DNA of 64,000 bases, taken from assembly GCF_000015825.1 (NCBI RefSeq), contig NC_009051.1, positions 1,730,695-1,794,694 of the forward strand, given 5' to 3'. Origin of the DNA: Methanoculleus marisnigri JR1 (GTDB lineage: Archaea > Halobacteriota > Methanomicrobia > Methanomicrobiales > Methanoculleaceae). Positions 3,757 to 13,004 of the stretch are shown here, piece by piece. Under the pieces are notes generated by a model. It was given only the letters and a program-made list of their open reading frames with translations. It was not told where the DNA came from and did not search any database. Position 1 is the stretch's first letter, and every line of letters begins with the position of its first letter. The translations under genes and the position numbers were made by a program.

Positions 3757-5120
3757 AGTCCTTCCTCGTCGCCGGCGACCGTTCCGGGAGCGGGAAGACG
3801 AGCATCACGCTCGCGCTCTCGGCCCTCCTCTCGACCGACCGGGCCGTCCAGACCTTCAAGGTGGGGATGGACTACATCGACCCTTCCTACCTTGCCGGGG
3901 TGACCGGGCGGCCCTGCCGGAACCTGGACGGCTACGTGATGAGCCAAGAAGAGGTCCGGGCGGTCTTTGCGCACGGGTGCCGGGGAGCGGATGTCGCCGT
4001 CGTCGAGGGAGTGCGGGGGCTCTTCGAGGGCGCAGAAGCGCTCACCGACCTCGGGAGCACGGCCGCTATCGCGAAACAACTCGACCTGCCGGTCGTTTTA
4101 GTCGTCAACGCCCGGAGCATCACCCGGAGCGCGGCGGCGATCGTGAAGGGCTTTTTGGCCTTCGACCCGGACGTCGACATCCGGGGGGTCATCTTAAACA
4201 ACGTCACCGGAACCCGGCACCGGGAGAAGGCTGTCCGTGCGATCGAGCACTACTGCGGTATCCCCGTCGTCGGGGTCATCCCCCGCACGGAGGAGATGGA
4301 ACTTGCCATGCGCCACCTCGGCCTCGTCCCCTACCGCGAAGGGCAGGAGCACGGGGAGTTCCTCACCCGGATCGAGACGGTGAAGCGGATGATCGCCGAT
4401 CACGTCGATGCGGACGCCCTGCTCGCGCTCGCCCGGGAGGGCGAGCCGCCGGCGGTGGAAGGTTCCGTCTACGCGGCGGCCGACCCGGATGTCAGGATCG
4501 GCGTCGCGCTCGACGAAGCGTTCAACTTCTACTACGCCGATCTCTTCGATATCCTTGCGTCATGCGGGGCCGAAACGGTTCCGTTCTCCCCGATCCACGA
4601 TCCATTGCCGGAGGCCGACGGCTACGTCCTCGGCGGCGGCTACCCGGAACTCTTCGGCGCGGAACTCGAGGCGAACACCGCGATGCGGGAGGGGCTCAGG
4701 GAGGTCTCCCGGAACGGCACGCCGATCTACGCGGAGTGCGGGGGGCTGATCTACCTCACCGACCGGATGGTTCTTGCTCCCGGCTTCATGGACGCGGGCG
4801 AGGAGCGATCTTACGACCTCGCCGGAGTCTTTGCCGGCGAGACCCGGATGCCCGCACGCCGGATGCTCGGCTATGTCGTCGGGACGAGCGCGGCAGGGAG
4901 CCCGATGGGCGAGGCGGCGTTCCGCGGCCACGAATTCCACTACAGCAGCGTCGACCTCGCGCCGGAGACGCGGTTCGCCTACCGGCTGAGCCGGGGGAGC
5001 GGGATCCGGGGGGGGTTCGACGGTGCGGTCCGGGACCGGACGATCGGGAGTTACACGCACCTCCACCCGGTGGCGAGCAGGGGGATGCTCGCGCACTTCA
5101 CGGACTGCTGCCGGGGCTGA
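3753..5120 (+). CDS. cfbB: Ni-sirohydrochlorin a,c-diamide synthase
   Basis: The 455-residue, two-domain enzyme resembles cobyrinic acid a,c-diamide synthase (CbiA). The N-terminal ATP-binding domain carries the loop 'GDRSGSGKTS' (Lys15). The C-terminal glutamine amidotransferase domain carries the nucleophile Cys329 in 'YAECGGLIYL' and late histidines in 'GHEFHYS' and 'YTHLHP'. It amidates the a and c acetate side chains of Ni-sirohydrochlorin. Its start overlaps the cfbD stop by four bases. Position in the cfb cluster separates it from its B12-pathway homologue. Confidence 0.92.
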   Translation: MKSFLVAGDRSGSGKTSITLALSALLSTDRAVQTFKVGMDYIDPSYLAGVTGRPCRNLDGYVMSQEEVRAVFAHGCRGADVAVVEGVRGLFEGAEALTDLGSTAAIAKQLDLPVVLVVNARSITRSAAAIVKGFLAFDPDVDIRGVILNNVTGTRHREKAVRAIEHYCGIPVVGVIPRTEEMELAMRHLGLVPYREGQEHGEFLTRIETVKRMIADHVDADALLALAREGEPPAVEGSVYAAADPDVRIGVALDEAFNFYYADLFDILASCGAETVPFSPIHDPLPEADGYVLGGGYPELFGAELEANTAMREGLREVSRNGTPIYAECGGLIYLTDRMVLAPGFMDAGEERSYDLAGVFAGETRMPARRMLGYVVGTSAAGSPMGEAAFRGHEFHYSSVDLAPETRFAYRLSRGSGIRGGFDGAVRDRTIGSYTHLHPVASRGMLAHFTDCCRG

Positions 5121-5134
5121 CGGGCCGCAGGCGA

Positions 5135-5143
5135 TATTTTTTT
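5135..5143 (+). terminator. oligo-T terminator after cfbB
   Basis: A run of seven T residues lies about 17 bases after the cfbB stop, which fits archaeal T-tract termination. No strong hairpin immediately precedes it. Confidence 0.45.
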
Positions 5144-5156
5144 GAGACTTCGCATT

Positions 5157-5441
5157 CTTCGTGGCTCGCACCTTCGGTGCTCATGCTCGCTTCACTCGCA
5201 CACCGCGTGAGTTTTTCGGTACAGAGGGGCAGTACAACCTCACGCGAAGAGCGCGAAGCCGCGAAGTGCGACCTCCCCCGCGGGGAGGGAGCATGAGCAC
5301 CGTCAGGTGCGAAGTGCGAGTTTAGCGAGCATGAGAAGCCATCAGGCTTCGAAGGAGAGTTCCTCTCGGATAACCGATCTTCGCGTCCTTCGCGGCTCGC
5401 ACCTTCAGTGCTCAAGCTCGCTACGCTCGCACTTCGCGTGA
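5157..5441. repeat. palindromic intergenic repeat block with direct and inverted copies
   Basis: The spacer between cfbB and ilvE is filled by a repeat rather than a gene. A segment at 5157-5211 recurs at 5388-5441 with roughly 85% identity by eye; both contain 'CGCACCTTCGGTGCTC'-like sequence and end in a GCGTGA motif. An inverted relative lies between them near 5300-5340 ('GAGCACCGTCAGGTGCGA'). The core is a small palindrome GCACC-(2-4 nt)-GGTGC. The same core recurs near 33,940 and 60,300-60,910. Confidence 0.75.
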
Positions 5442-5598
5442 ACTAGCGGGTGCGGATAGCGATGCAGTAGTCGCACGCGAAATGCAACGTTCCATAGTAA
5501 CCGAGTTCAAGGGACATCACGCCTCCGGCCATCACGGTCGTCGCCGGACGGTGCACGAAACGCAAAACATACAAGCAAATCGATACTACACTACCCCC

Positions 5599-6468
5599 AT
5601 GATAATTTACCTTGACGGCAGATTCGTCCCGGAGGAGGAGGCGAAGGTTTCGGTCTTCGACCACGGGCTTCTCTACGGCGACGGCGTTTTCGAGGGGATA
5701 CGGGCCTACAACGGCAGGGTCTTCCGTCTCGACGAGCACATCGCACGGCTCTACGACTCGGCGAAGGCAATCGACCTTGCCGTCCCGATCACGAGGGAGG
5801 AGATGGCCGAGGCGATCAAGGAGACGCTCCGGAAGAACAACTTGAAGGACGCCTACATCCGCCCGATCGTGACGAGGGGCGTCGGCGACCTCGGTCTCGA
5901 CCCCCGGAAGTGCGAAAAGCCGACCGTCATCGTCATCGCCGTCACCTGGGGCGCGATGTACGGCGACCTCTACGAGAAGGGGCTCCGGGCGGTCTGCGTC
6001 TCGGTCCGCCGCACCCCGCCGGAGTCGATGCCGCCGAACGTCAAGAGCCTGAACTACTTAAACAACATCCTCGCGAAGATCGAGGCGAACTACCGCGGCG
6101 TCGACGAGGCGATCTTCTTCGACACCAAGGGCTACATCGCCGAGGGCTCGGGGGACAACATCTTCGTCGTCAAGGACGGCGCCATCGTCACCCCGCCGAC
6201 TTTAAACAACCTGCGCGGCATCACCCGGGCGGTCGTCCTCGAGATCGCGGAGTCGATGGGCATCACCCTCCTCGAGCGGAACCTCGGCTACTTCGACCTC
6301 TACACCGCCGACGAGGTCTTCGTCACCGGAACCGCGGCGGAAGTCGGCCCGATCCGCGAGATCGACGGCCGCGTCATCGGGAACGGCAAGCCCGGCCCCG
6401 TCACCCGGCAGCTGATGGCGGCCTTCAAGACCGTCACCCAGAAGGAAGGAAGCCCGATCGGCGAGTGA
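5599..6468 (+). CDS. ilvE: branched-chain amino acid aminotransferase
   Basis: The 289-residue protein is a fold-type IV PLP aminotransferase. It opens with '[18 protein letters not shown]' and '[12 protein letters not shown]', carries the PLP lysine in '[10 protein letters not shown]' (Lys149) and the phosphate-binding segment '[10 protein letters not shown]', and ends with '[12 protein letters not shown]'. It interconverts leucine, isoleucine and valine with their 2-oxo acids. The ATG follows the AT-rich stretch after the upstream repeat block; a longer in-frame extension lies in that non-coding spacer. It is a single gene followed by a hairpin terminator and tRNA-Glu. Confidence 0.93.
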
Positions 6469-6522
6469 GGAGAACCGGCCCGCCGACCGGGCCGGCCGGG
6501 ATTCTCCAGACATAACTTTTTT
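6469..6522 (+). terminator. hairpin plus T-tract after ilvE
   Basis: Directly after the ilvE stop, GGAGAA pairs with TTCTCC at 6502-6507 around an inner GGCCCG/CGGGCC stem. Six T residues follow at about 6517-6522. Confidence 0.6.
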
Positions 6523-6566
6523 ATCCGCTCACGCCCAAGTTGTATAGCACTTCGGTGCATAGATTC

Positions 6567-6639
6567 GCTGCTATAGTGTAGGGGCCAATCATGTCGGCCT
6601 TTCACGCCGACGACAGGGGTTCGAATCCCCTTAGCAGCA
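6567..6639 (+). tRNA. tRNA-Glu (anticodon TTC)
   Basis: The acceptor stem GCTGCTA (6567-6573) pairs with TAGCAGC (6632-6638), followed by discriminator A. The anticodon loop CTTTCAC places TTC at 6601-6603. The T arm reads GGGGTTCGAATCCCC. No CCA is encoded, as expected in archaea. It marks the left edge of the AT-rich island, although I found no duplicated tRNA 3' end further right. Confidence 0.95.
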
Positions 6640-6715
6640 TACTGTTCTGACGAGAGAGCGATAAACTTAAAATAATTTCTATTTGGTGGATTGACAGAAA
6701 TATTGCTCAAGCGCA
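6640..6715. other. start of AT-rich island, no gene seen
   Basis: Base composition drops sharply in GC just after tRNA-Glu. No open frame or structured RNA is evident in this short stretch. A similar empty AT-rich gap lies at 7148-7338, where 'TATATACTC' near 7287 could serve as a TATA box for the next gene. Confidence 0.5.
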
Positions 6716-7147
6716 TTAAGGAATGACATGAACGATTTGCTTACCTTTTAAGAATTCTTTGAGCGCATTAATCGACAGACAGTCACAGCGGTCACATCCT
6801 GTAGTGGATCTTTGAACAGTACAGTAGGAGTTGTTTACATTGTATGTATTGTAGTTACTAACCACAGTAATATTTGAAGGATCCTGGCTGTTCTCTTTAG
6901 AATCCTGAACATAGATGAAAGCAATACTCATAAAAATGATGTAAATTGCCAAAATGAATAGCGTGATTTTTTGAGGAGTGCGATAATTTTCCCCTGAGAA
7001 TAGATTGCTTGTACTTGCAGACGTGCCATTGTTTTGCGAAAGATTATGGTAGTATGCACTAATCCATCAATTTCCAAGTAGCGACGTGATTATTGCGACG
7101 ACAACAGCGGCAAAAAAAAGGAATGCTCCTTCTGGTGAAAAGGTCAT
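6716..7147 (-). pseudogene. small two-helix membrane protein gene interrupted by an in-frame TGA
   Basis: From an ATG at 7147 the frame encodes a hydrophobic N-terminus ('FLFFAAVVVAIITSLLGN'). It meets TGA at 7069-7067 and continues in exactly the same frame through 'WISAYYHNLSQNN', a second membrane helix ('TLFILAIYIIFMSIAFIYV') and a Cys-containing tail to a stop at 6716. The unbroken reading would be 143 codons. The codon after the TGA is TGG, so a single TGG-to-TGA change is the simplest explanation. Coding character on both sides argues for one gene. It resembles no family I know. It could instead be expressed from a downstream TTG near 6952 as a 78-residue protein. Confidence 0.55.
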
Positions 7148-7338
7148 AATAATTTATGGCATCAACCCCATGTAAATTCTTTCTCATCTTCATGAAACCG
7201 TTTTTAGTCTAGAAAGGGAATACAATAGTTTAGATTGTAGATTTAGTCCTTTTGGATATATTATTTTCACAACGCGCGGATCCAGCATATATACTCGGCC
7301 GAATTAAATAGAGATTATTTCAGTAATAAGAGGCAAAA

Positions 7339-7599
7339 ATGAAATTCCAAGGATCCATAATCAAAGAGCAAGGGGTGACCTTTGCTATCGTTATTGTAAA
7401 GAGACACATTGTTGATAACAGACACGAAGCCGAAAAAGTTATTGCGAGTTTTCAGCCCATCTTTCCAGGAATGCCCATTATACTCATGGCACAAGATTCA
7501 AGAGGAAGGCCCACGTATTTCGGGAGACACGACATTGCAAAATTCATGTCGAAAGTCCCTCTTCACGCAGTGCCGTGGAAGGAATATACACTCCATTAA
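7339..7599 (+). CDS. hypothetical 86-residue protein
   Basis: The frame starts with ATG after a purine-rich 'AAGAGGCAAAA' stretch and encodes a small basic protein. Its beta/alpha-like pattern includes 'GVTFAIVIVKRHIVDN', 'FPGMPIILMAQD' and 'RPTYFGRHDIAKFM'. Amino-acid composition and the TATA-like sequence upstream make it credible as a gene. I do not recognise the family. It lies alone in the AT-rich island between two damaged membrane-protein genes. Confidence 0.6.
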   Translation: MKFQGSIIKEQGVTFAIVIVKRHIVDNRHEAEKVIASFQPIFPGMPIILMAQDSRGRPTYFGRHDIAKFMSKVPLHAVPWKEYTLH

Positions 7600-7907
7600 C
7601 CCCATTTTGTGAGAGTATTCATATACGCCATAAAAATATTCAAATGCGAGCACAGGGACCGCAGGAACCACGCCCCCGCTAACGTCTCAGGGTTCAAAGC
7701 AATTCCATATCTTTAGCTCTCCCTCTCGTTTGCAAGCAGATAAAACGCCTCAGAATAAACTCGTCCCTGCACCAGCCTCAGACAGTCTGGTGGTAACGTT
7801 CAACATAAAAGGCGTTCTTATACTTGGGAAGCGCTCCAAAGTGGGGTTCACCTTAAAGATTATTAAAAGAGTATATTAAATGCTGTTAGGACGGCCAAGT
7901 AAGATGA
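7600..7907. other. intergenic, no convincing gene
   Basis: No ribosome-binding site with a sustained frame is visible. The minus strand contains a short coding-like tail ('HFGALPKYKNAFYVERYHQTV' ending at about 7790, here only an observation) bounded by a nearby upstream stop. It may be a fragment of a lost gene. Confidence 0.4.
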
Positions 7908-8198
7908 TCACTTTGATAGAATTGCCCTTTCCTTAAACCCAGTCCACAAGTATACTTTTTTCCGGAGAGTCACCATGAGACAGAATAGAGCGATCACTAG
8001 CAGGATAACAGTCCACAATAATCCGCTTAAAGCGACATCTTCAGCGTTAAAAGTCAGAATATCTAGGGGTTTAACGTAGGTCAAACCAGAAGCCACGAGT
8101 GTTGTGACAACGGAGAGTGCAACAAACCCGAAGCCAAGGACGACGCTAACATCTGTTAAAAGAGTTGTATATAAATTAATTCTATTATCACATATCTC

Positions 8199-9042
8199 GA
8201 GGTGATCCTATAATTATAAGTCTTCTCAGATAAAATTAGAGATCATGGCGTTCCGGGAAATTGACGATGATCTCTGGGACATTGTCCAGAAACACCTCCC
8301 CCCAACGAAGCCGCACATCGGTCGACCTCGCTGTGATCCCCGCGGGCTGATCAACGGCGTCCTGTACGTTCTGACCACCGGATGCTCCTGGCTCGATGTA
8401 CCGGCTAAATACGGCACCAAATCGACGGTTCACCGGTACCACCTCGAACTCTGCGAGAAAGGCGTGTACCAGGCGATCTTCCTCGACCTGCTCCGGTCGG
8501 GGTACGAGATCAAAAAAATCGATCTCTCGCACTGTTCCACCGATACTAAGGCTATTCCCGCTAAAAAAGGGGATCAACCGGCTATGATGGCTATAAAAAG
8601 GTAAACGGGAACAAAATGAGTGCTCTGGTCGATCGGAACGGTCTCCCGCTTGCCTGCACGGTTGTACCGGCAAATACCCATGATTCCCGACTCTACGAGC
8701 CAACCCTTGAAGGATTTGAGATTCCGGAGGTGTCGGTTCGTCCCACGATCATCTCCGCAGATGCGGCCTATGATGCCCGGGAGATTCGTCAGTACAACCG
8801 GAACCGGGGAATTAAGAGCAACATCCCGGTCAACCAGAGATCGCGGAAACAGCCGAAACGAGGGAGGCCATTCTGGTTTGATCCAGAACTCTACAAAAAG
8901 CGCAGTGCGGTAGAGCGGTTCTTCAGCTGGATTGAAGCGTTTAAGAAGATTGTTCCAAGATACGAGCGGTATGAGCACTCATTCCTCGGCCTGATCCACC
9001 TGGCATGCAGCGTCATGATTGCGAGAGTATTGGGATGAGCTC
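8199..9042 (+). mobile_element. IS5-family insertion sequence (844 bp)
   Basis: The element carries one transposase region. Its ends are imperfect inverted repeats: GAGGTGATCCTA on the left, and GAGCTCATCCCA read inward from the right, 9 of 12 matching. It is flanked by CTC on both sides (8196-8198 and 9043-9045), a likely 3-bp target duplication. Because CTCGAG is palindromic, the exact boundary could shift by a few bases. It interrupts a membrane-protein gene, and its GC content is higher than the island around it, so it is a separate arrival. Confidence 0.75.
8245..9038 (+). pseudogene. IS5-family DDE transposase, frameshifted between two frames
   Basis: The first frame (8245-8604) has the IS5 N-terminal helix-turn-helix region ('GRPRCDPRG', 'LYVLTTGCSWLDVP') and the first catalytic aspartate region 'STDTKA'. 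The second frame (8616-9038) continues with 'LVDRNGLPLACT', the second aspartate in 'ISADAAYD' and the glutamate in 'SAVERFFSW'. The family sequence 'GYDGYKKV' that should bridge them is present in the second frame upstream of its ATG, so the shift is -1 near 8565-8600. AAAAAAGGGG (8562-8571) or AAAAAGG could serve as slippage sites for a programmed fusion. A one-base deletion after 'KKGDQ' explains it equally well. Confidence 0.8.
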
Positions 9043-9210
9043 CTCAATAAACTGCTTTAATTCATCTGGATCATAGGTTTTCCTCGAAAAAGTGTCATCG
9101 ATATGTCGATGAACTTTGGAGAAATCAAGATCGAAACTCCAAAAGAACATGCGAAAAGGCTTTTTTGCTAAAGAATCACAGTCTTTAACCAGATCGTAGA
9201 CCTTGGACAT

Positions 9211-9558
9211 AGTCAAGCACTGTAACAAAAATCGGTAACGCGGTATATATGTGTTTGTGAAAATAGGTCCGAACAAAAACTGGAAAATTGGTAAACAATC
9301 CAGTATTATAACAGTCTTACGAATACTATCACAGTAACTCCCATCGCTCACGCTCTACATACCGATGCAAAGTATATCTCCAATGTGGCTAAGAGTAAAA
9401 CTGTAAGCAAATATACCCCCTAGAATCACCGCAGTACTCAACATATCGTTTTGAATTGCCGATACAGGAGCCAACCTGTTTCGACAGATTTATTTCAACT
9501 GGAAAGTTATGATTTGTAACTAACGAAAGAAGCAATCCAAGAAGAGAATTTATACCAG
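9211..9558. other. AT-rich spacer before the TIR gene
   Basis: This stretch holds no convincing complete gene. An in-frame coding-like extension of the TIR gene begins after a TAA near 9517 and lacks an ATG. On the minus strand a GTG-started extension of the split membrane protein is possible back to 9351. Confidence 0.4.
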
Positions 9559-9603
9559 TTGATTTTCGATCTTAAAGAATTAGTTGCTGATAAAGGGAAC
9601 AGA

Positions 9604-10512
9604 ATGGCTGATAGCAGAAAGTTTTCATCAGAGGAACTAAGAGCGCTATCGGAGAATTTGAGGGAGCAAAGAAACACAGCTGAAAAACTGTTAAAGGATA
9701 GACATGGTGAAGACTTTAATCGACCCCTTGCAAAACAATTTGTTCGTGATTTATTTGGAGGAGCAACCTGCGGAATAGAGGACGCAGAGGTACGCGAGTG
9801 GTACAATGAGACACTAGCATTAGTGGACCACGTATTTGGTACGCAAAATTTGTATGTTCGAAGATTCATCAAACTCCAAAAGGAGCATGATGTTGATATT
9901 TTCGGTTTTAATTCGTTTTCTACAGGCCGATTACTTAAAGACTCATTCAATATTTTAGAGGATTGCATTAAGCAACTAGAAATGAAGATAAATATAACGA
10001 GTAAGCCGAAAAAGCAAGATAGGCGAGTTTTCATCGTTCACGGACATAATGAGCAAACAAAAGACGAAGTAGAAAAATTTCTCACTAAATATTCATTAGA
10101 GCCGATAATATTGCACAAACAGGCAAATCTAGGCAAAACAATTATTGAGAAAGTCGAGCACTATAGCAATTCGGTGCGTTTTGCAATAATATTATTGACC
10201 GGAGATGATATCGGCGCAAAGAAAAACACACCTCACAATCCCCCAAGTTTCCAAACTAAAAAAGGTACACTCATTGCAAATGACCAATGGAAAAATGCGA
10301 TCCTAGACAATTTAAAGAAAAGAGCAAGACAGAATGTTATTTTTGAATTCGGCTATTTCGTTGGATTGTTAGGTCGGGAAAACGTAATCATCCTTTATGA
10401 GGATGGCGTTGAACTTCCATCAGATACTCAGGGCCTCTTGTACATATCATTGAACAGTGATTGGCAAAACCAACTCGTGAATGAGATTAAAGCTGTTGGA
10501 ATAGATTGCTAA
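9604..10512 (+). CDS. TIR-like nucleotide-binding protein (Cap12/STING-type TIR domain)
   Basis: The 302-residue protein has an alpha-helical N-terminal region (about 1-135) with no recognised domain and a C-terminal TIR-like domain (about 141-302). The TIR part reads 'RVFIVHGHNEQTKDEV', 'LEPIILHKQANLGKTIIEK', 'AIILLTGDDIGA' and 'RARQNVIFEFGYFVGLLGR', followed by 'LPSD..GLLYI'. This is the layout of bacterial and archaeal TIR proteins related to CBASS/Pycsar effectors, which often degrade NAD+. Glu248 in 'IFEFGYF' and glutamates in 'IIEKVEH' are conserved-looking acidic candidates. I used the ATG at 9604; the frame stays open upstream (TTG at 9559, coding-like from about 9520). No cyclase or sensor gene lies beside it. 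Confidence 0.8.
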   Translation: MADSRKFSSEELRALSENLREQRNTAEKLLKDRHGEDFNRPLAKQFVRDLFGGATCGIEDAEVREWYNETLALVDHVFGTQNLYVRRFIKLQKEHDVDIFGFNSFSTGRLLKDSFNILEDCIKQLEMKINITSKPKKQDRRVFIVHGHNEQTKDEVEKFLTKYSLEPIILHKQANLGKTIIEKVEHYSNSVRFAIILLTGDDIGAKKNTPHNPPSFQTKKGTLIANDQWKNAILDNLKKRARQNVIFEFGYFVGLLGRENVIILYEDGVELPSDTQGLLYISLNSDWQNQLVNEIKAVGIDC

Positions 10513-10740
10513 TCGCACCATTATCTGTATAGCTACCTAGATCAATTAAATTAGGATGACCACTTCTCTACTTGAAAACAATACCGATACACGTAATTTT
10601 TCTGCGCCAAGCAGGAGATCATGACACCAGGAGAGCATCCGAGATCGAGTTTTGAGAAGACAGTCTTCAAATCGATCTACAGTTGTCGCTTGAACAATCC
10701 AAATTACCTTACTCTATTCCTCCCAAGCCTCCTGTTCGAC
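10513..10740. other. transition from AT-rich island to GC-rich chromosome
   Basis: No supported gene is present. Base composition rises through this segment, and the duplicated GC-rich segment begins at its right edge. Confidence 0.5.
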
Positions 10741-11018
10741 TCCCCTTCGTTACACCCCGGGGTCTACCCACAACCAAAGCCTTCCTCGATGCCGCGATCC
10801 TTGGGCCGCCCAACGCGCCTCCACCGTATCCCCGGCTCCGCAACACTCCCCGGTGTTGTCACCCCAGGTTCCCGCGCGTAACTTCCCCGGACTCCCGTAT
10901 CCCGTCTCGTCCCCATGCCGGCAGCCGATCCCGCCTCTACCCCAACCCGCGACTCCCGAAGCCCCTGTCCCCCGGGAATGCAACGTCGTTCAGCACCCGA
11001 AATAGCCGGAGCCCCAAA
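10741..11018 (-). repeat. copy 1 of a duplicated ~270-bp segment with the tail of a winged-helix gene
   Basis: This segment matches 12457-12732 over its length, at roughly three quarters identity by eye. Shared blocks include 'CCCGGGGTCTACC', 'AGCCTTCCTCGATGCCGC' and 'GTAACTTCCCCGGACT'. Read on the minus strand it starts with a 14-codon remnant 'LRLFRVLNDVAFP' matching the end of the intact wHTH gene at 12423-13004. After that the frame is disrupted by a missing base. It is therefore a partial gene duplication, or a repeat that carries the gene's 3' end. Confidence 0.75.
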
Positions 11019-11067
11019 TAGAACATTGATAAAACCATAACGTCAATATCCCATACGGTGCCGCCCA

Positions 11068-11376
11068 ATGAGAGAACGCAACCATCCTACGCCGGAGGGG
11101 CCTGACCCGGAAGAGAGAGGAGCTACCTTCCTTGGATGGTTAAAGAAACGCGGCGGCATGAGGAAGGTGCAGGACTGCCAGCGGAAGTGCAGAGAGAACG
11201 GCTTTGAGGCGAAATATTTTGTCGATTCAATGGGATCGGATTACATTCGCCTCTACCGTGCCGGCGGAGGGGACAAAGTCATCAAACTTGAAAAGCCCGT
11301 GTGGGCGGACCAATGGATGACCTACTACGATCTCGAAGTGCCTCACCACCGGCACTGGACCAAACTGAAAGAATAG
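11068..11376 (+). CDS. hypothetical 102-residue protein
   Basis: The protein is small, basic and soluble. It begins with a charged N-terminus, followed by 'TFLGWLKKRGGMRKVQDC', 'FEAKYFVDSMGSDYIRLYR' and 'KVIKLEKPVWADQWMTYYD'. No signal peptide or membrane helix is visible. A TATA-like stretch near 11030-11040 precedes it. I do not recognise the family. It is followed, after a gap, by two small regulator-type genes in the same direction. Confidence 0.6.
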   Translation: MRERNHPTPEGPDPEERGATFLGWLKKRGGMRKVQDCQRKCRENGFEAKYFVDSMGSDYIRLYRAGGGDKVIKLEKPVWADQWMTYYDLEVPHHRHWTKLKE

Positions 11377-11511
11377 ATCCTGTATCAGAATATTTTTTTA
11401 CTATTACTGGCCATTACTCACCACGGGCTACTACGTACTCCCGGTTAGAGTACCAGTAGTGACACGATCGTGGTAGAAATGCAGATACCATAGTTACGCG
11501 GAGGAATGATT

Positions 11512-12012
11512 ATGTCAGGACAAGAACTGCCGGAGCTTCCTGGAGAACTCGAAGAATTCCTGGACAAACCCTATGGTGGTCTATTCGGGAATACCGTTCT
11601 CGCTCAGGTTGTTGAAGAGATCGTCGCCGATCCGACGATGGATTATCGGCCCGGGTACCTTGAGGAGATGACGGGCAAAAAGGCCCCCAGCATCAGAGAG
11701 GCGCTCAAGACGCTCGTCAAACTCGGACTGATCGAGAACGTATCAAGTGACGTCCAGCATCCGGTCTATCGAGTTGTCGTCGAGTCGAAGAAGTTCATTG
11801 CGCTCTCTCTGCTGGCCTATGCCGTGCTCGACGACCGGGACGGGACGGACTGCATGAACACGGCAATCCTGGATTACTACAATAGATCGCTCAGAGCAAA
11901 AGTGGAGCCGCTTGCAGTCGCGACGAACTATGCCGGCGAATGGACTACCGGAGAAGATTGCTCTGCACGGGAAGCAGAGTCAGAATATTCGATCTTCTCT
12001 GTGGGGGCGTAA
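11512..12012 (+). CDS. winged-helix DNA-binding protein
   Basis: The 166-residue protein has a winged-helix segment at about residues 25-85 ('GNTVLAQVVEEIVADP', 'APSIREALKTLVKLGLIENV', 'PVYRVV'), followed by a helical region and an acidic tail. It is probably a transcriptional regulator. I chose the second ATG (MSGQELPELP) because GGAGG lies about 7 bases upstream of it, whereas it abuts the first ATG at 11506. It is followed 2 bp later by a DUF3467 protein, suggesting one operon. Confidence 0.7.
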   Translation: MSGQELPELPGELEEFLDKPYGGLFGNTVLAQVVEEIVADPTMDYRPGYLEEMTGKKAPSIREALKTLVKLGLIENVSSDVQHPVYRVVVESKKFIALSLLAYAVLDDRDGTDCMNTAILDYYNRSLRAKVEPLAVATNYAGEWTTGEDCSAREAESEYSIFSVGA

Positions 12013-12014
12013 CC

Positions 12015-12392
12015 ATGGAGGAGGAGCAGAAAGAGAAGAAAGATGGAGCAATAGCCGTCGATCTCCGCAAACTCTATCGGTTCGAGCCGGGGGAACTGCA
12101 GCTGGATATCGCGCACAGTTCCTACTCAAACCTTGCGTACGTGCAGGTAGCGCACAGAGATGTCTGCATCGACTTTCTGGAGATGCCCGGCGTCCGCCGG
12201 GACGGTAGAGCGCGAATAAACGGAACACGCGTCTACATGTCGCACGCCGCCGCACAGAAACTCGCTGAAGCACTCAGTGGAATTCTTGAGAGGGTGCATA
12301 CGGAGGAAGGCATGGAGAAGTACGTCCCCGGAGGTCTGAGGAGACGACCCTCAACAGAAGTTGAGCGGGAGCAAGAAGACAGACCCGTATAG
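12015..12392 (+). CDS. DUF3467 domain protein
   Basis: The 125-residue protein has the DUF3467 pattern: 'HSSYSNLAYVQVAHRDVCI', 'FLEMPGV', 'TRVYMSHAAAQKLAEALSG'. The family's function is unknown. The C-terminal 25 residues are charged and probably disordered. The ATG follows the upstream wHTH stop by two bases, so the pair is likely co-translated. That pairing suggests a shared regulatory role, which is inference. Confidence 0.75.
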   Translation: MEEEQKEKKDGAIAVDLRKLYRFEPGELQLDIAHSSYSNLAYVQVAHRDVCIDFLEMPGVRRDGRARINGTRVYMSHAAAQKLAEALSGILERVHTEEGMEKYVPGGLRRRPSTEVEREQEDRPV

Positions 12393-12422
12393 AGTTCCCA
12401 CATGCTGCCGATTGGTTGCGGT

Positions 12423-13004
12423 TCACACTCGATCGCGTAGAAGCCTCCTGTCCCGGCCCCGCTTCACTGCTTCCCGGGGTCTACCACCCGCCGAAGCCTT
12501 CCTCGATGCCGCAATCCTCGGCCGCCCCACACGCCTCCACCGTATTCCCGGTTCTGCAACACTTCGCGATGTCATCTCCGGTTCCCTTGGGTAACTTCCC
12601 CGGACTTCCGTATCCCTTCCCGTGCCGGCAGCCGATCCCGCGTCCACCGCGACGCGCGATCCCCGGGGCGCCCGTCCCCCGGGAATGGCGACATCGTTCA
12701 GAACCCGAAATAACCTCAGACCCAGAGCGGTCGGCTCGTAGAACACCTTCCGCTTATCGGCAAAATCCTCGAGTTTGGCGATCCTCCTTGCCACAAGCCC
12801 GCCGTCGACAAGACCTTTCAGAACCGGGCCGATGGTGTTCGGGTTCGCTTTGAACTCCTCTTTAATCTCATTGAAGTACTTCCTGCCCTCGAGCACCAGG
12901 GCAATGTACACGGCCCACCGGAGATCGCTATTCAGTTCCGTCACGGCAGCCCGGGCCTCGTAGGGGACTTCGTTCAGGAATTCTTCAACGACTGCCTGCT
13001 CCAT
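12423..13004 (-). CDS. winged-helix transcriptional regulator with an anomalous Arg/Gly/Ser-rich tail
   Basis: Residues 1-110 form an ArsR/MarR-like winged helix ('LRWAVYIALVLEGRKYFNEIKEEF', 'NPNTIGPVLKGLVDGGLVARR', 'KVFYEPTALGLRLFRVLND'). The remaining ~80 residues are low-complexity and arginine-rich and are encoded by the duplicated segment 12457-12732. In copy 1 the equivalent frame hits a stop soon after 'LND'. The tail may therefore be read-through caused by a frame change rather than a real domain. The ATG at 13004 follows a GAGGTG site, preferred to the ATG at 13025. Confidence 0.7.
   Translation of the reverse strand: MEQAVVEEFLNEVPYEARAAVTELNSDLRWAVYIALVLEGRKYFNEIKEEFKANPNTIGPVLKGLVDGGLVARRIAKLEDFADKRKVFYEPTALGLRLFRVLNDVAIPGGRAPRGSRVAVDAGSAAGTGRDTEVRGSYPREPEMTSRSVAEPGIRWRRVGRPRIAASRKASAGGRPREAVKRGRDRRLLRDRV
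12457..12732 (-). repeat. copy 2 of the duplicated ~270-bp segment
   Basis: This is the partner of 10741-11018. It overlaps the last 14 or so codons of the winged-helix domain and all of that gene's arginine-rich tail. Confidence 0.75.

What the first reader, a model, noticed from the sequence alone, without database searches (positions are those of the whole stretch)
7908..9210. IS5-family insertion splits a membrane-protein gene that can be rejoined in frame
Deleting 8199-9042 and one CTC duplication restores an unbroken ~151-residue frame with two membrane helices. The precise in-frame rejoining supports both the element boundaries and the reality of the broken gene, and indicates that the insertion is recent.
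Basis: seen in the sequence. Interest (0 to 1): 0.55.

Follow-up and report, generated by a model that had tools for sequence, protein, structure and literature searches.

The report
Jumping gene breaks archaeal membrane-protein gene
A small, apparently recently moved transposable element (IS5 family) sits inside and breaks a gene for a two-helix membrane protein in a methane-producing archaeon; this is an ordinary kind of event, here documented precisely.

Summary
Confirmed, and ordinary. The chromosome has the published size of Methanoculleus marisnigri JR1. At 8199-9042 lies an 844-bp IS5-family element flanked by a 3-bp CTC duplication. A second copy, identical over 844 of 844 bases, lies elsewhere with the same ends and a CAT duplication. 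It too breaks a small membrane-protein gene, and relatives hold that site empty: 160 bp align gaplessly across the junction. Of the 30 near-full-length copies listed for the family, 17 have matching 3-bp flanks at these ends; shuffled mean 1.1, maximum 6. The broken gene is real: uninterrupted homologues (39% and 35% identical) span the insertion point, one beside the same kind of tRNA-Glu; nine other genomes in all hold stop-free relatives. No empty orthologous site was found for the window copy itself, and the broken protein matches no known family convincingly. Added: the transposase is split into two frames related by -1 in 19 of 25 scorable copies, and the gene lies in a low-GC, variable stretch beside tRNA-Glu.

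The parts
8199..9042 (+). IS5-family insertion sequence, 844 bp; imperfect terminal inverted repeats GAGGTGATCC / GAGCTCATCC (8 of 10 alike)
   Evidence: Same ends in the second identical copy and in other copies
8196..8198 (.). target duplication CTC, left copy
9043..9045 (.). target duplication CTC, right copy
8245..8604 (+). transposase first open frame, 119 aa (PF13340; NF033580 positions 4-103 of 258)
8565..9038 (+). transposase second open frame, in the -1 frame, DDE domain (PF01609; NF033580 positions 111-256 of 258)
   Evidence: -1 relation in 19 of 25 scorable copies of 30
8563..8572 (+). AAAAAAGGGG run at the start of the frame overlap, candidate slippage site (inferred)
   Evidence: run of at least five A and three G in 27 of 30 copies; no in-phase heptamer here; folding downstream not better than shuffles
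9043..9210 (-). 5' part of the broken gene, 56 codons from ATG
   Evidence: aligns to homologues
7908..8198 (-). 3' part of the broken gene, both hydrophobic segments and the stop
   Evidence: aligns to homologues
6567..6639 (+). tRNA-Glu(TTC) bordering the low-GC stretch that holds the broken gene

Best explanation
An 844-bp IS5-family element moved recently within this chromosome into a small two-helix membrane-protein gene, duplicated a 3-bp target (CTC) and so disrupted the gene. Shown: the ends, the duplication, the second identical copy, the empty site of that second copy, intact homologues of the broken gene. Inferred: that the DDE transposase is made as a fusion of its two frames by -1 slippage near the A6G4 run; that the gene is now without function, since its 5' part reads 9 codons into the element and stops before both helices; and the age.
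For: Second copy identical over 844 of 844 with CAT duplication; empty site of that copy, 160 bp without gap at 98.75% and 96.25% in two relatives; 17 of 30 copies with 3-bp duplications at these ends and none with a 4- or 5-bp match at these ends; IS5 transposase models; homologues that span the junction, with the conserved F-[IL]-x-ICD-x-RI stretch lying across it; truncated 65-residue product.
Against: No empty orthologous site for the window copy: 3 of 40 genomes of the family have the gene, own included, and the two others are 35-39% identical. 13 of 30 copies show no 3-bp match, which decay, rearrangement or misplaced ends could explain. With one end moved by a base, 4-bp matches occur in up to 6 of 30. 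Identity of the two copies could also come from gene conversion. Slippage is not shown; downstream RNA folding is ordinary (z -0.77), and 6 of 25 scorable copies do not have the -1 relation.
Confidence: 0.96

Rival explanations
1. The two flanking frames are chance open frames in low-GC DNA and no gene was broken; the element sits between genes.
For: The rejoined protein matches no Pfam, NCBIfam, PADLOC or PHROGs family convincingly and is rare.
Against: Both pieces match one uninterrupted protein in each of G039 and G026, with invariant residues on both sides of the junction and at it; seven more relatives in the phylum sample.
Confidence: 0.02
2. The gene was already without use before the element landed, so the insertion is a neutral passenger.
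For: Low-GC, variable stretch by a tRNA; gene found in only 3 of 40 genomes of the family.
Against: Apart from the element the frame is whole over 151 codons.
Confidence: 0.15
3. The true duplication is 2 bp, as usual in the IS427 group, and the element is one base longer.
For: IS427 elements in one survey mostly have 2-bp duplications (PMC3281130, passages of its Table 2).
Against: In the 17 copies the third base matches too and differs from copy to copy (15 different triplets).
Confidence: 0.02

Closest known systems
IS5 family insertion sequences (NCBIfam NF033580, transpos_IS5_3)
   Same: The two transposase halves together match positions 4-103 and 111-256 of the 258 of one model; 844 bp; short imperfect inverted repeats; short duplication
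   Different: The reading frame is split in two; the first half alone stays below the model's cut-off (85.2 against 110 bits), the second passes it (121.3)
IS427 group of the IS5 family (Paracoccus elements, PMC3281130, passages seen)
   Same: 832-865 bp in the 11 rows seen; two overlapping frames with a frameshift motif, by that paper
   Different: Duplication there 2 bp in 10 of the 11 rows seen and 4 bp in one; here 3 bp
ISCaa2/ISCaa3, ISL2 group of the IS5 family (PMC3196728, passages seen)
   Same: Two frames, marked -1 in that table
   Different: 914-916 bp; that table has a 0 where I take the duplication to stand (heading not seen). Its IS427 member, ISCaa13, is marked +1

Membership tests
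IS5 family | IS5-type DDE transposase | tested here: met
   NF033580: second frame 121.3 bits (cut-off 110, positions 111-256 of 258), first frame 85.2 bits (below the cut-off alone, positions 4-103); PF13340 and PF01609 above their cut-offs
IS5 family | short terminal inverted repeats and short target duplication | tested here: met
   8 of the first 10 end bases alike; 3-bp duplication here and in 17 of 30 copies
IS427 group of IS5 | two overlapping frames | tested here: met
   here; -1 relation in 19 of 25 scorable copies of 30
IS427 group of IS5 | 2-bp duplication (as in 10 of 11 rows seen of PMC3281130) | tested here: not met
   3 bp in 17 of 30 copies; so not filed in this group
a named ISfinder element | sequence identity to a reference entry | not testable with these tools
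   ISfinder is not held
SLATT-type two-helix effectors (family recalled, from no call) | profile match of the broken protein | tested here: not met
   No SLATT model among the Pfam matches up to E 10 of the rejoined protein or of 7 homologues, although HMMER's filters drop most matches above about 0.1; nearest hint CyanoTRADDas_TM, 1 of 7, E 0.093

The most novel reading that the evidence does not exclude
The broken gene belongs to an undescribed, rare family of archaeal two-helix membrane proteins carried at variable sites, possibly a defence or stress effector next to a TIR-type gene, and the element inactivated it in JR1.
Probability: 0.15. Interest if true: 0.4.

Novelty: new member of a known kind. 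Interest (0 to 1): 0.2.

Why it matters
It gives exact ends, a 3-bp duplication and a split-frame transposase for an IS5-type element spread through this genus and family, and indicates that it moved recently in this strain. It also flags a gene that an annotation of this genome should treat as interrupted.

Tried and rejected
Named relatives of the broken protein: the genome-contig scan found none, plasmids none at E 1e-5, solved structures none below E 0.8; viral contigs and the phage collection were not searched with it. Conserved neighbours: open frames around 9 relatives read by eye (sequences were cut at 260 residues) showed me no shared partner and no TIR gene, but the neighbours were not scanned against families. 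Repeats of the tRNA-Glu end in the window: only short matches, best E 1.0 apart from itself. The promoter scan covers sigma-70 types only; a TATA-like stretch upstream of 9210 was seen by eye. Classical A-AAA-AAG heptamer: in phase in 2 of 30 copies, not in this one; that script took the first ATG as the start, which gave a first frame under 110 residues, or none, in 10 of the 30, so the count is rough. A structure prediction of 7 homologues was not finished, so no fold is claimed and fold search was not run. Papers: searches, of which I saw the listings (in 33, 36, 39 and 56 only part of the papers found was listed), and passages only of PMC3281130, PMC7371123, PMC3035220 and PMC3196728. No listed title named this element. 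ISfinder was not available.

Full report
Identity. The window lies at 1,730,695-1,794,694 of a single contig of 2,478,101 bases. That is the size given for the chromosome of Methanoculleus marisnigri JR1 in PMC3035220 (passages seen); the name rests on this match alone.

The observation. The bases at 8196-8198 and 9043-9045 are CTC; 8199-9042 begins GAGGTGATCC and, read from the other end, GAGCTCATCC, eight of ten alike. Joining the flanks with one CTC gives 151 codons from the ATG at 9210 to the stop at 7908. Two hydrophobic segments, residues 72-90 and 115-133, both lie in the part left of the element. In the chromosome as it is, the 5' part reads nine codons into the element and stops at 65 residues, before either helix.

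The element. A search of the own chromosome found one more full copy, identical over 844 of 844 bases, and two shorter matches, 268 bases at 76% and 84 bases at 80%. The second copy has the same ends with CAT on both sides. It too splits a small gene: an intact orthologue in L067 has 113 residues and two hydrophobic segments. 23 of 40 genomes of the family, own included, have a match to that protein, the best at 97% identity. At DNA level the joined flanks of that site align over 160 bases without a gap to two relatives, at 98.75% and 96.25%: an empty site, which fixes the ends and the 3-bp duplication.

Across the family, 33 of 40 genomes have some match to the element (as a rule 12 candidates a genome were scored). 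I took all 30 listed matches that begin at or before position 14 and end at or after 835, the two own copies included, and left out the shorter ones. 17 of the 30 have identical 3-bp flanks at these ends, 15 different triplets, and none has a 4- or 5-bp match there; shuffling the right flanks gave a mean of 1.1 and a maximum of 6 in 10,000. With the ends moved by a base, 4-bp matches occur in up to 6 of 30. 13 of 30 show no 3-bp match. The best near-full-length copy in another genome is 90% identical; short pieces at contig ends reach 99% over 99 bases and 94% over 216. The identical pair here points to recent movement; gene conversion would look the same.

The transposase. The first frame (8245-8604) and the -1 frame open from 8565 to 9038 match positions 4-103 and 111-256 of the 258 of NF033580, IS5 family transposase, and PF13340 and PF01609. 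Both halves could be recognised in 25 of the 30 copies; in 19 of these 25 the second lies in the -1 frame relative to the first, in six not. So the split looks like a trait of the lineage and not damage to this copy. 27 of 30 copies carry a run of at least five A followed by at least three G at the start of the overlap. That slippage there makes the fusion is inference: this copy has no in-phase A-AAA-AAG heptamer and the RNA downstream folds no better than shuffles (z -0.77).

The broken gene. The 151-residue protein finds both its own pieces and two uninterrupted proteins, in G039 (39%, residues 1-151) and G026 (35%, residues 2-149): 3 of 40 genomes of the family, own included. A profile of the three found no more in 232 genomes of the order (3 of 232) and 9 of 392 sampled from the phylum, own and G026 included, so seven new. 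These nine other genomes' matches all cross the insertion point and hold no stop, though three begin only at profile position 48 and one at 47. The stretch F-[IL]-x-ICD-x-RI straddles the junction in the three aligned proteins; in seven homologues F, C and R of it are invariant. It matches no family convincingly: Pfam E 5, PADLOC CorA-like E 0.038, PHROGs E 0.31, NCBIfam E 0.21; among seven homologues the best Pfam are DUF2207_C (2 of 7, E 0.014) and SecG (1 of 7, E 0.018), both below their cut-offs where shown. I cannot name its function.

The setting. From about 6500 to 10500 the GC is 37-45%, apart from the windows over the element (46-55%); upstream, 4000-6499, it is 59-68%, downstream, 10500-13000, 50-62%. 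The low-GC stretch begins at tRNA-Glu. In G026 the homologue also lies just after a tRNA-Glu(TTC), downstream of a gene 91.8% identical in DNA to the one before the tRNA here (I take it for a branched-chain aminotransferase, a recalled label), with one further gene between. Of 30 loci fetched around this place in the genus, 24 had a tRNA and more than 200 bases beyond it, own included. GC after the tRNA is lower than before it in 24 of 24. Nine pairs share a stretch of more than 150 bases; the window's own matches none of the other 23. So the site is variable, which fits the rarity of the gene.

Verdict. It is an ordinary event with an ordinary element; what is added is the second copy with its empty site, the 3-bp duplication across copies, the conserved split frame and the variable tRNA-Glu site.

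Noticed in passing
window 9559-10512 (+): Gene with a CAP12/Pycsar-type TIR domain (PF10137, 133.7 bits; PADLOC candidate PDC-S35), facing away from the broken gene in the same low-GC stretch.
   Followed up: no
window 6567-6639 and downstream: tRNA-Glu followed by sequence that varies among genomes of the genus and is lower in GC than upstream in 24 of 24 loci; no repeat of the tRNA end found in the window.
   Followed up: partly
L002 (second copy of the element): The second identical copy also interrupts a small gene for a protein with two hydrophobic segments, intact in relatives.
   Followed up: yes
L003 and L004: Partial matches to the element, 268 bases at 76% and 84 bases at 80%, elsewhere in the chromosome.
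   Followed up: no
window 10737-10980 and 12454-12687: Two stretches about 1.7 kb apart that match each other at 76-83% in four adjoining pieces: an old repeat just beyond the low-GC stretch.
   Followed up: partly
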